Shown: piece after piece, positions 47,676-51,107 of the stretch | How positions within the stretch are numbered: position 1 is the first letter of the stretch | Layout of the letters: each line of letters begins with the position of its first letter | NCBI GenBank assembly: GCA_029240245.1 | Contig: JARBTJ010000006.1 | Coordinates: forward strand, 1-64,000 | DNA: 64,000 nt | DNA from: Herbinix sp. | GTDB taxonomy: Bacteria > Bacillota > Clostridia > Lachnospirales > Lachnospiraceae | Direction of reading: 5' to 3' | Program-made: the position numbers and the translations under genes | Notes under the pieces: generated by a model | What the model was told of the DNA's origin: nothing | The model's input: the letters and a program-made list of their open reading frames with translations, nothing else | Databases searched by the model: none

Positions 47676-47720
47676 TTGACATTTTAAGGTATTTGCTATA
47701 TATTTTGATTATCAAAATAT
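47676..47720 (+). promoter_or_regulatory. promoter and FabT operator of the fab operon
   Basis: TTGACA (47676-47681), 17-bp spacer, TATATT (47699-47704). Overlapping the -10 and start point is TATTTTGATTATCAAAATAT (47701-47720), a palindrome broken only at its centre and matching the known FabT box. FabT binding would block polymerase, so the operon, including fabT, is autoregulated. FabT recognition is family knowledge; the overlap is seen directly. Confidence 0.9.
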
Positions 47721-47755
47721 TTGCAATACAAAACATATGCTTAGGAGTGGAGCAC

Positions 47756-48217
47756 GTGAAGGAAAAATTAGTTGAAATTAATAAGATGCTTGTAGAGGTA
47801 TATGATGATGTAAACCACATCGAAGAATTTTCAATCAAAAAAGGTGTCTTCAGTGATTTGTCCATTACCGAAATTCATACAATTGAAGCAGTTGGGCTTT
47901 ATGGTTCAAAAACAATGTCTGAAGTTTCTGCAGAATTAGAGATAACTATGGGTACACTAACAACAGCAGTTGACAAGCTGATTAAAAAAGGATATATGCT
48001 GCGGAACCGCAGCAACACAGACCGTAGAATTGTAAATGTCAGCCTGACAAAGCGTGGAAAACTGGCTTACCGTATTCATGAAAAATTTCATTTGGATATG
48101 GTGGAAGCCATCATTGATGATTTTTCGGCGGAGGAGGAAGAAATTCTACTTACGGCTCTTAGAAAACTCAACATGCATTTGAAGGATATTTATACGGCAG
48201 CAAGGCGCGTTGATTAG
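47756..48217 (+). CDS. fabT: MarR-family fatty-acid regulator
   Basis: 153 residues from GTG 47756 with AGGAGTGG upstream; an earlier in-frame ATG would lie in the operator and is rejected. The MarR winged helix is visible (SITEIHTIEAVGLYGSKTMSEVSAELEITMGTLTTAVDKLIKKGYMLRNRSNTDRR with the wing Asp-Arg-Arg). FabT represses fab genes when bound to long acyl-ACP. Assignment rests on family, place at the head of the fab operon and the FabT box in its promoter. Confidence 0.93.
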   Translation: MKEKLVEINKMLVEVYDDVNHIEEFSIKKGVFSDLSITEIHTIEAVGLYGSKTMSEVSAELEITMGTLTTAVDKLIKKGYMLRNRSNTDRRIVNVSLTKRGKLAYRIHEKFHLDMVEAIIDDFSAEEEEILLTALRKLNMHLKDIYTAARRVD

Positions 48218-49733: not shown

Positions 49734-49970
49734 ATGGATTTAAACAAAATCAAGGAATTAGTTGCAGAACAATTAGGAGTTGACGTAGCAGAGCTTACCG
49801 AGAGCACTTCATTAAAGGATGATTTAAATGCAGATTCCTTAGATCTTTTTCAAATCATCATGTCCTTAGAGGAGGAATTCGGTATCGAAATTCCTACTGA
49901 AGATACAGAAAGCATCCGTACCATCGGTGATATTGAAAGTTACTTAAACAGCAAAAACGAAGAGGCTTAA
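49734..49970 (+). CDS. acpP: acyl carrier protein
   Basis: 78 residues, strongly acidic; the phosphopantetheine Ser lies in LNADSLDLFQ (residue ~37). ACP carries growing acyl chains for all Fab enzymes encoded downstream. AGGAGG precedes the ATG. The stretch after its stop codon holds the unusual Shine-Dalgarno repeats before fabK. Confidence 0.95.
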   Translation: MDLNKIKELVAEQLGVDVAELTESTSLKDDLNADSLDLFQIIMSLEEEFGIEIPTEDTESIRTIGDIESYLNSKNEEA

Positions 49971-49993: not shown

Positions 49994-50162
49994 GGAGGAA
50001 TACCTTCTGTCGACTTGCGAGGAAAACCTTCGAAAGCAGGAGGGTATTTTACTTTCTACACTTATGACAGGAGGAAAATCCTCCAAAACCAGGAGGAAAA
50101 TCCTCCAAAACCAGGAGGAAAATCCTCCAAAACCAGGAGGAAAATCCTCCAAAACCAGGAGG
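49994..50162 (+). repeat. tandem Shine-Dalgarno/anti-Shine-Dalgarno array before fabK
   Basis: Four identical 22-bp units at 50069, 50091, 50113 and 50135, each with core GGAGGA-AAA-TCCTCC and spacer AAAACCA, then a fifth AGGAGGA (50157-50163) that is the fabK ribosome site, 12 bases before the ATG. Two decayed units precede them (near 49994 and 50019). Each unit can fold on itself, and each CCTCC can instead pair with the next GGAGG, so the last CCTCC may cover the fabK site. Not a CRISPR: unit spacing has no unique spacers. Confidence 0.92.
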
Positions 50163-50174
50163 ATATGGTAGAAA

Positions 50175-51107
50175 ATGAATTCACGTATATGTGAACTGTT
50201 AAATATAGAATACCCCATTTTCCAAGGAGCAATGGCTAGAATATCCGATGCCTCATTGGCAGCGGCTGTATCGGAAGCAGGTGGACTTGGAATTATTGCA
50301 GGGGGTACTGCACCGGTTGATTATGTTCGCGCGGAAGTACGTAAAGCAAAGGAACTTACGAAAAAACCCTTTGGCGTAAATATTATGTTACTCAGTGAAA
50401 ATGCAGATGCAATCGCTGCTATGGTATGCGAAGAAGAAGTTAAGGTAGTCACAACAGGCGCTGGCGCACCGGGAAAATATATGGAAATGTGGAAGGATCA
50501 TGGAATTAAGGTAATCCCGGTGGTTCCATCGGTAGCAATTGCAAAGCGAATGGTACGCAGCGGTGCAGACGCAGTAATAGCCGAAGGTACCGAATCCGGC
50601 GGTCATGTGGGTGAATTGACCACGATGGTTCTTGTTCCGCAGATTGTAGATGCTGTAGCTGTGCCGGTGATTGCAGCCGGAGGAATTGGTGATGGAAGAG
50701 GTATCGCAGCGGCATTTATGCTGGGGGCAGAAGGTGTTCAGATCGGAACCCGCTTTTTAACGGCTCATGAGTGTACCGTTCATCCTAATTATAAGCAGAA
50801 AATATTAAATGCTAAGGATATCGATACTGTGGTTACCGGACGTAGTACGGGACATCCGGTTCGAACCTTAAAGAATAAATTAAGCCGCAAATTTGCAGAG
50901 CTAGAAGCTTCCAATGCACCCGTCCAGGAAATAGAACAACTGGGAGTCGGAGCACTTGCGAAAGCAGTTGTCCAGGGCGATACAGAATTCGGCAGTATCA
51001 TGGCCGGACAGATTGCGGCTATCGTAAACAAGGAACAAAGCTGTAAAGAGATTATAACCGAAATGCTTACAGAGGCAGAAGCATTGCTTCATAAGGAGTG
51101 GAGGTAA
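50175..51107 (+). CDS. fabK: enoyl-ACP reductase II (FMN-dependent)
   Basis: 310 residues. FabK reduces enoyl-ACP with NAD(P)H and FMN, the last step of each elongation cycle; no FabI is present in the cluster. Nitronate monooxygenase-like TIM barrel: EYPIFQGAMARISDASLAAAVSEAGGLGIIAGG at the N-terminus, DAVIAEGTESGGHVG near 145, VIAAGGIGDGRGIAAAFMLGAEGVQIGTRF with phosphate-binding loop. The ribosome site is the last member of the tandem array. It is followed by fabD after 2 bp. Confidence 0.96.
   Translation: MNSRICELLNIEYPIFQGAMARISDASLAAAVSEAGGLGIIAGGTAPVDYVRAEVRKAKELTKKPFGVNIMLLSENADAIAAMVCEEEVKVVTTGAGAPGKYMEMWKDHGIKVIPVVPSVAIAKRMVRSGADAVIAEGTESGGHVGELTTMVLVPQIVDAVAVPVIAAGGIGDGRGIAAAFMLGAEGVQIGTRFLTAHECTVHPNYKQKILNAKDIDTVVTGRSTGHPVRTLKNKLSRKFAELEASNAPVQEIEQLGVGALAKAVVQGDTEFGSIMAGQIAAIVNKEQSCKEIITEMLTEAEALLHKEWR

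What the first reader, a model, noticed from the sequence alone, without database searches (positions are those of the whole stretch)
49994..50175. Tandem SD/anti-SD array as possible translational switch for fabK
Four perfect 22-bp repeats, each GGAGGA-AAA-TCCTCC, end exactly at the fabK ribosome site, giving five SD and four anti-SD copies. If pairing starts within units, the fabK site stays free; if each CCTCC pairs with the next GGAGG, the fabK site is masked and the first SD is free. Perfect repeats also invite slippage, so copy number could vary among cells and tune fabK. The SD copies could also act as ribosome standby sites.
Basis: partly seen in the sequence, partly recalled or inferred. 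Interest (0 to 1): 0.85.

Follow-up and report, generated by a model that had tools for sequence, protein, structure and literature searches.

The report
Repeated ribosome-site masking switch in leaders
In the bacterial genus Herbinix many ordinary genes, fabK in this window among them, are preceded by repeated units in which a short anti-ribosome-site sequence can pair either with a decoy site upstream or with the gene's own ribosome site, which points to an undescribed built-in control of translation.

Summary
The array is real: four identical 22-bp units plus a partial fifth (50068-50163), five GGAGG and four CCTCC, ending at the fabK ribosome site. It is not peculiar to fabK. The SD/anti-SD/SD pattern matches in 31 of 34 genomes of the genus, Herbinix: 886 matches, 199 for the pattern read backwards, 13 for a scrambled core. 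Of 146 arrays examined in nine genomes, 127 end 5-12 nt before a start codon, on one strand only. The last anti-SD is fitted to the gene's own SD: beyond the searched 5-bp core, pairs 1-3 form in 91, 91, 81% of 127 arrays (permuted 47, 63, 73%), pair 4 in 18% (19%). Where gene and unit differ (38), it follows the gene 30 times, the unit 3. In 6 of 6 orthologue groups whose gene base changed, the anti-SD changed too. Of 100 leaders gathered by orthology, 25 hold such a helix (0.78 expected), 22 of these also the decoy SD. Best reading: a two-register translational switch. Trigger, effect and within-strain copy-number variation are untested; folding models do not predict clear repression of fabK.

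The parts
49734..49970 (+). acpP, acyl carrier protein gene upstream of the array
   Evidence: ORF of 78 aa; matches the acyl carrier protein loci used
49994..50065 (+). probable decayed older units: GGAGG 49994, CCTTC 50003, GAGG 50019, CCTTC 50027, GGAGG 50039
   Evidence: motif positions; reading as decayed units is inference, by analogy with gyrB leaders whose upstream units are degenerate
50068..50089 (+). unit 1: SD 50070-50074, anti-SD 50080-50084
50090..50111 (+). unit 2: SD 50092-50096, anti-SD 50102-50106
50112..50133 (+). unit 3: SD 50114-50118, anti-SD 50124-50128
50134..50155 (+). unit 4: SD 50136-50140, anti-SD 50146-50150; local (ON) hairpin GGAGGA 50136-50141 with TCCTCC 50145-50150, loop AAA
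   Evidence: isolated hairpin -9.1 kcal/mol
50144..50164 (+). masking (OFF) hairpin: ATCCTCC 50144-50150 with GGAGGAT 50158-50164, 7 bp, loop of 7
   Evidence: found by the complementarity scan, the only such leader among 51 SD-preceded ORF starts of the window (0.275 expected in shuffles); isolated hairpin -10.6 kcal/mol
50158..50162 (+). gene-proximal SD of fabK
50175..51107 (+). fabK, enoyl-ACP reductase II
   Evidence: ORF of 310 aa; NCBIfam TIGR03151

Best explanation
The array is one member of a genus-wide class of cis-acting leader elements that control translation by masking the ribosome site. Each element has three parts: an upstream decoy SD, an anti-SD a few bases after it, and the gene's SD. 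The anti-SD can pair with only one of the two SDs at a time. Paired with the decoy (small A-rich loop, formed first as the RNA is made) it leaves the gene SD free; paired with the gene SD plus its next three bases (8 bp) it masks it. Tandem copies give n anti-SDs and n+1 SDs, so a fully paired leader has one SD free, and which one is free depends on the register. Shown here: the anatomy, the position and orientation at gene starts, and co-variation of the anti-SD with the gene SD. Inferred: that the helix forms in the cell, that it lowers translation, that the fast local hairpin and slower masking hairpin form in that order, and that 30S subunits bound to decoy SDs shift the balance. No signal or ligand is identified.
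For: 127 of 146 arrays end 5-12 nt (mode 6) before a start codon on one strand, 0 on both, 19 on none. Inner pairs beyond the searched core between the last anti-SD and the gene SD: 0.91, 0.91, 0.81 of 127 against 0.47, 0.63, 0.73 permuted; 0.18 and 0.15 at positions 4 and 5 against 0.19 and 0.20. Within-genome permutation: mean extension 2.50 against 1.27, 0 of 5000. One array per gene: 88, 90, 83 of 100, then 19 of 99 and 14 of 97. Own and gene base differ in 38 of 127: anti-SD fits the gene in 30, its own unit in 3, neither in 5. Of 20 orthologue groups present in more than one genome, 6 have a changed gene base and all members of all 6 stay paired. Chosen by orthology, not pattern: 25 of 100 leaders with a helix of 7 bp or more (0.78 expected), 22 of 25 with the decoy SD too (2.24 expected). 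carB of G031 keeps a 12-bp helix although the SD core has become AAAGGAG. Scrambled core 13 matches against 886. Isolated masking hairpin more stable than the local one in 81% of 37 short-spacer and 93% of 90 long-spacer arrays at 37 C.
Against: No expression, structure-probing or translation data. Equilibrium folding does not show repression at fabK: P(gene SD free) 0.66 without units and 0.60-0.87 with 1-8 units at 37 C (at 55 C 0.84 and 0.40-0.57). In whole-leader ensembles the anti-SD prefers the gene SD in short-spacer arrays (0.50 against 0.33) but its own SD in long-spacer arrays (0.29 against 0.56), at odds with the isolated hairpins. 12 of 127 arrays lack the first extra pair. 19 of 146 arrays have no gene start at the expected place. 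The element is not conserved at any one gene: 4 of 24 fabK, 3 of 23 acpP, 5 of 23 carB, 13 of 30 gyrB leaders. Three genomes have no match, Herbinix luporum among them. Position 3 exceeds its permuted value only modestly.
Confidence: 0.6

Rival explanations
1. DNA-level repeat without regulatory role: palindromes made by strand switching and slippage at GGAGG, or a small element that inserts at SD sites and duplicates them, tolerated because an SD remains in front of the gene.
For: Long-spacer units share a near-constant length (spacer 32 in 67 of 144 counted leaders) and a conserved stretch after the anti-SD, roughly GTTRTAWGTA, as copies of one element would. Flanks before the decoy SD and before the gene SD are alike even in single-unit arrays (0.61 against 0.49 permuted in 53 long ones). 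Arrays are absent or few in many species. Copying of the gene SD onto the other strand would also give complementarity.
Against: A scrambled core of the same composition gives 13 matches in 34 genomes against 886. The complementarity stops sharply after three extra bases, which copying does not explain. The anti-SD follows the gene, not its own unit (30 to 3), and matched changes are seen in 6 of 6 orthologue groups, though independent gain in each species is not excluded.
Confidence: 0.2
2. Ribosome standby or capture array: the upstream SD copies hold 30S subunits near the start and raise initiation; the anti-SDs only keep the copies folded.
For: In 16 gyrB leaders with any such motif, exact GGAGG upstream of the gene SD outnumber exact CCTCC 38 to 25 (more SD in 10, fewer in 1, equal in 5). 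Structured standby modules can support high initiation rates (PMC3936740, abstract and outline seen).
Against: It gives no reason for the anti-SD to match the gene's downstream bases. C-to-T bias on the coding strand could also make CCTCC decay faster than GGAGG (inference). The count takes all GGAGG in 170 nt, not only array members.
Confidence: 0.1
3. mRNA protection or binding site of an RNA-binding protein: hairpins or 30S-occupied SDs shield the 5' end or processed end from nucleases, or a protein reads the repeats.
For: Long-spacer units hold a conserved stretch that pairing does not explain. Decoy SDs are well kept.
Against: Such sites need not sit 5-12 nt before the start codon nor be matched to the gene SD. 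No candidate protein was sought here.
Confidence: 0.07

Closest known systems
TAACTGA direct repeats upstream of start codons in Beggiatoaceae and others (MacGregor 2015, PMC4679880; abstract and outline seen)
   Same: Genome-wide short tandem repeats within several nucleotides of putative start codons of functionally unrelated genes, some essential; a translational role proposed; no pattern in gene function.
   Different: Heptamer repeats that are not SDs; its outline states that canonical ribosome sites are rare there. Here every unit contains an SD and its complement, and the complement is fitted to the gene's SD.
SD-sequestering metastable hairpins of Helicobacter pylori aapA toxin mRNA (Masachis 2019, PMC6733600; abstract and outline seen)
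   Same: Short hairpins that mask an SD, with alternative structures thought to form in order during transcription.
   Different: A single toxin mRNA with an antitoxin RNA; here tandem units at many housekeeping genes and no antisense RNA known.
Expression platforms of translational riboswitches and of erm/cat attenuators (recalled)
   Same: Three segments in competition: anti-anti-SD, anti-SD, SD.
   Different: No aptamer family recognised by Rfam; the fabK units hold no ATG, GTG or TTG to start a leader peptide (sequence); tandem repetition.
Ribosome standby sites (Espah Borujeni 2013/14, PMC3936740; abstract and outline seen)
   Same: Structured upstream modules that can change initiation rates.
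   Different: Standby modules need not contain SDs nor complement the gene SD.
Variable-number tandem repeats in phase variation (recalled)
   Same: Perfect tandem repeats close to a translation signal, able in principle to change number.
   Different: No strain variation seen or tested here; genes are housekeeping; units keep pairing.

Membership tests
Translational switch by SD sequestration | A complementary segment that can pair with the gene's SD | tested here: met
   7 bp at fabK; 8 bp or more in 95 of 127 arrays; 25 of 100 leaders chosen by orthology against 0.78 expected
Translational switch by SD sequestration | A competing upstream segment that releases the SD | tested here: met
   22 of the 25 orthology leaders with the masking helix also have the decoy helix, 2.24 expected; 4 of 4 AATCCTCC/GGAGGATT places in the own genome have it
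Translational switch by SD sequestration | Translation changes when pairing changes | not testable with these tools
   no expression data
Riboswitch | Known aptamer upstream of the expression platform | tested here: not met
   Rfam at gathering threshold on the window: only a tRNA at 27-98; 20 loci at E up to 0.1: two hits below their gathering scores, one of them (Histone3, 24.4 bits, cut-off 34) inside an array
RNA thermometer | SD freed on warming within the growth range | tested here: inconclusive
   model P(gene SD unpaired) 0.18 to 0.22 (short) and 0.31 to 0.38 (long) from 37 to 55 C, a small change; growth temperatures of the unnamed species unknown
Leader-peptide attenuator (erm/cat type) | Short translated leader ORF across the pairing region | tested here: inconclusive
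   no start codon in the 22-bp fabK unit; other arrays not checked systematically, and units of G015 fabK (L005) do hold ATG
Phase-variable tandem repeat | Unit number varies within a strain or species | not tested
   one genome per species held; between species the unit number differs
Dispersed mobile repeat (REP/MITE-like) | Homologous copies at unrelated places regardless of gene strand | tested here: not met
   gene on one strand only in 127 arrays, on both in 0 of 146, on none in 19; long-spacer units do share a consensus, so a common origin of units is not excluded

The most novel reading that the evidence does not exclude
Herbinix carries a 'one free ribosome site' governor: leaders with n anti-SDs and n+1 SDs in which conserved pairing leaves about one SD free per mRNA, the free site moving along the array. 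New RNA folds locally with the gene SD open and later falls into the masked register unless a 30S subunit takes the gene site first, and 30S subunits on decoy sites push the register towards masking, so dozens of housekeeping genes read ribosome supply and mRNA age without any ligand or protein. In the fabK model the expected number of free SDs is 0.84-0.93 for 1 to 8 units at 37 C.
Probability: 0.22. Interest if true: 0.9.

Novelty: new variant of a known kind. Interest (0 to 1): 0.75.

Why it matters
SD masking is usually found one gene at a time and tied to a ligand, peptide, antisense RNA or temperature. Here the same three-part competition appears as tandem modules at many unrelated housekeeping genes of one genus, with base-pair co-variation to show that the masking helix itself is kept. 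If it works as read, it is a simple, ligand-free way to set translation at many genes, it evolves by adding and losing units, and dozens of natural variants of one design are at hand for testing how competing SDs share ribosomes. Even if it proves to be a tolerated repeat, its fit to each gene's SD needs explaining.

Tried and rejected
A second hairpin in the long spacer (positions 1-4 with 9-12 after CCTCC) looked likely by eye but shows no co-variation (pairing at the permuted level); the best of several hundred exploratory column pairs reached z about 3.4, uncorrected, and I make nothing of it. A CRISPR-like array was considered because of regular spacing and dropped, since neighbouring spacers within an array are near-identical (listing). 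A known Rfam family: none. Copy number as the main dial of fabK: the model gives only a weak dependence, and no lower SD access with units than without at 37 C. A second masked leader in the window: 1 found among 51, the fabK one. Literature searches for such arrays found nothing describing them: (open-licence PMC full texts only; one search was an input error); most subscription papers are not in that library, so 'not in print' is not claimed.

Limits of the counts. The 146 arrays come from nine of 34 genomes, from result lists that show only the first places of a genome; the search pattern fixes GGAGG/CCTCC/GGAGG and a spacer of 2-32, so only positions outside it are evidence, and longer spacers were missed (one search finds some at 33-38 and beyond). 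At least five of the 19 arrays without a gene start lie within 5 nt of an end of the stretch held (L256, L329, L339, L360, L373), L360 through my own cut. Orthologues are grouped by at least 50% identity over the first 25 residues. gyrB, carB, acpP and fabK were chosen for because arrays had been seen at them, so 25 of 100 is not a genome-wide rate. The gyrB panel holds 30 of 32 matches (locus cap), the tree 29 of these 30, the acpP panel 23 of 24 leaders (one of 26 nt dropped). 886 counts matches on both strands, several per array; its control, the pattern read backwards, gives 199 and is itself partly met by arrays.

Full report
What is there. The window holds acpP (49734-49970), a 204-nt gap and fabK (50175-51107). 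The gap contains four identical 22-bp units and the first bases of a fifth, 50068-50163, with five GGAGG and four CCTCC. Upstream, 49994-50065 carries further SD-like and anti-SD-like pieces that read as decayed units. The own genome holds this array once.

It is a class, not a single array. GGAGG-(1-8)-CCTCC-(2-32)-GGAGG matches 26 times at eight places in the own genome (backward control 14), and seven of the eight precede an ORF: fabK, a DegV-family protein, ClpX, an isocitrate/isopropylmalate dehydrogenase relative, an Opp-type ABC ATPase, and two proteins without a Pfam match. In the genus 31 of 34 genomes have a match, 886 matches in all, with 199 for the pattern read backwards, a control that arrays partly satisfy. 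A scrambled core, GAGGG/CCCTC/GAGGG, gives 13 matches in 10 of 34 genomes, and at least three of those 13 themselves lie in SD arrays. The stricter GGAGG-AATCCTCC-GGAGGATT matches in 24 of 34 genomes and its backward control in none.

The genus. So the genus is Herbinix, Lachnospiraceae, by inference. H. luporum itself has no match. In a gyrB tree of 29 species, array-rich genomes fall in two groups; long spacers (about 32 nt) dominate in one (G032, G013, G001, G014) and short ones (about 7-10) in the other, with exceptions both ways. Among 250 family genomes, one per genus, AATCCTCC-N-GGAGGATT is found in 44 including the own genome, mostly once; whether those lie at gene starts was not checked. 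A capped scan of named genomes for AGGAGGAAAATCCTCC gave 116 loci; 13 of them have the full module before an ORF, mostly from this genus, with single cases in Anaerocolumna aminovalerica (L069), a Lachnoclostridium (L102) and another Lachnospiraceae (L125), and two (L110, L136) that may be chance.

Position and orientation. I fetched stretches around places listed for nine genomes and merged matches of both strands into 146 arrays. 127 end 5-12 nt (mode 6) before a start codon (120 ATG, 4 GTG, 3 TTG) of an ORF of at least 50 aa, or an open one of at least 20, on one strand; none on both; 19 on neither. The genes are unrelated: CarB, IlvC, GyrB, acyl carrier protein, LeuB, RNase III, GlgA, IolD, MurD, SerC, NusB, PheS, PyrF, IspF, IleS, GH31 and GH94 enzymes, rubrerythrin, ribosomal protein S18, HisS.

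The anti-SD is fitted to the gene. The pattern fixes five pairs; the bases beside them are free. Between the base 5' of the last CCTCC and the base 3' of the gene's GGAGG, pairs 1, 2, 3 form in 0.91, 0.91, 0.81 of 127 arrays, against 0.47, 0.63, 0.73 when partners are permuted; pairs 4 and 5 are at 0.18 and 0.15 against 0.19 and 0.20. The helix thus has 8 bp and a sharp end. With one array per gene the counts are 88, 90, 83 of 100, then 19 of 99 and 14 of 97. The unit's own SD is also complementary, more weakly (0.86 against 0.60 permuted). The two can be told apart in 38 arrays whose own and gene bases differ: the anti-SD fits the gene in 30, its own unit in 3, neither in 5. In short-spacer arrays the first outer pair also leans to the gene (0.63 against 0.37 permuted) and not to the unit (0.35 against 0.30).

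Matched changes between species. Of 100 gene groups, 20 occur in more than one genome. In 6 the base after the gene SD differs between species, and in all 6 every member remains paired: carB (A, C and T versions), IspF, GH94, GH31, rubrerythrin, HisS. carB of G031, which the pattern misses, has an SD changed to AAAGGAG with a 12-bp masking helix and a 9-bp decoy helix. Against this, 12 of 127 arrays lack the first extra pair, gyrB of G005 among them.

A test that does not start from the pattern. For gyrB, carB, acpP and fabK I took leaders by orthology (30, 23, 23 and 24). 25 of 100 contain a helix of 7 bp or more between the SD region and the 75 nt upstream, 0.78 expected from shuffles; 22 of these 25 also hold an upstream decoy SD able to pair with the same anti-SD, 2.24 expected. 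By gene: gyrB 13 (12 with decoy), carB 5 (5), acpP 3 (3), fabK 4 (2). These genes were picked because arrays had been seen at them, and the element is a minority state at each.

How it may work. The anti-SD can hold the decoy SD or the gene SD, not both. As isolated hairpins, masking beats the local one by 1.4 kcal/mol on average in 37 short-spacer and 3.8 in 90 long-spacer arrays at 37 C, 0.6 and 1.2 at 55 C; with the gene's downstream bases permuted the differences are +0.14 and -1.69. At fabK the values are -9.1 (local) and -10.6 (masking). In whole-leader ensembles the balance differs: anti-SD with gene SD 0.50 and with own SD 0.33 in short, 0.29 and 0.56 in long arrays. I read this as two states of similar weight, the local one favoured by order of synthesis, the masking one by extra pairs. 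A fabK model with 1-8 units keeps the expected number of free SDs at 0.84-0.93 and P(gene SD free) at 0.60-0.87 at 37 C; without units the latter is 0.66, so equilibrium folding does not predict repression at 37 C. At 55 C it is 0.84 without and 0.40-0.57 with units. The step from pairing to lower translation, and any trigger, are therefore inferred.

Upstream units. In gyrB leaders upstream units are often degenerate. Over the 16 leaders with any such motif, exact SD copies number 38 and exact anti-SDs 25; 10 leaders have more SD, 1 fewer, 5 the same. This suits decoy or standby use of the SDs, but a C-to-T bias would do the same.

Rivals. A DNA repeat tolerated at SDs would explain the near-constant unit length, flank similarity and the shared GTTRTAWGTA-like stretch after the anti-SD of long units, which pairing does not explain. 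It does not by itself explain the end of complementarity after three bases, the preference for the gene over the unit, or matched changes. Standby and protection models do not need the fit to the gene SD.

Known things. No Rfam family covers it. Eight text searches found no description in the open-licence library. The nearest published case is the TAACTGA repeats before start codons of Beggiatoaceae (PMC4679880, abstract and outline), which are not SDs. Competing SD masks are known from riboswitch and attenuator leaders (recalled) and toxin mRNAs (PMC6733600, abstract and outline). I class this as a new variant of a known kind: known logic, new tandem and genus-wide form, no known input.

Noticed in passing
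long-spacer arrays of G032, G013, G001, G014, e.g. L316-L395: After the anti-SD CCTCC a stretch close to GTTRTAWGTA is conserved at unrelated genes; a hairpin there is not supported. It has no explanation here.
   Followed up: partly
window 49994-50065: SD-like and anti-SD-like pieces that look like older decayed units upstream of the perfect array.
   Followed up: partly
L034 126-487: A different array of about 50-bp units with the same GGAGGAAAATCCTCC hairpin ends at the SD of an ORF with a cysteine-rich, ferredoxin-like N-terminus (function by eye).
   Followed up: partly
L411 (G015): A very long array, with degenerate units upstream and several near-identical units closely resembling the fabK ones next to the gene.
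   Followed up: no
L069, L102, L125: Single modules outside the genus, in Anaerocolumna aminovalerica, a Lachnoclostridium and another Lachnospiraceae.
   Followed up: no
L256, L339, L373 and others: Several arrays sit at contig ends, so short-read assemblies probably break in them and counts are low.
   Followed up: no
L300 (carB of G033): Leader without the GGAGG/CCTCC module but with TACTAATC-AAGGGG-GATTAGTA, a hairpin that puts an SD-like stretch in its loop (sequence; by eye).
   Followed up: no
window 50165-50194: An ATG two nt after the last GGAGG opens a nine-codon ORF out of frame with fabK (sequence; by eye).
   Followed up: no
window 47693-48217: MarR-family regulator gene (Pfam PF01047) before the fatty-acid genes, the place of FabT in some Firmicutes (recalled).
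   Followed up: partly
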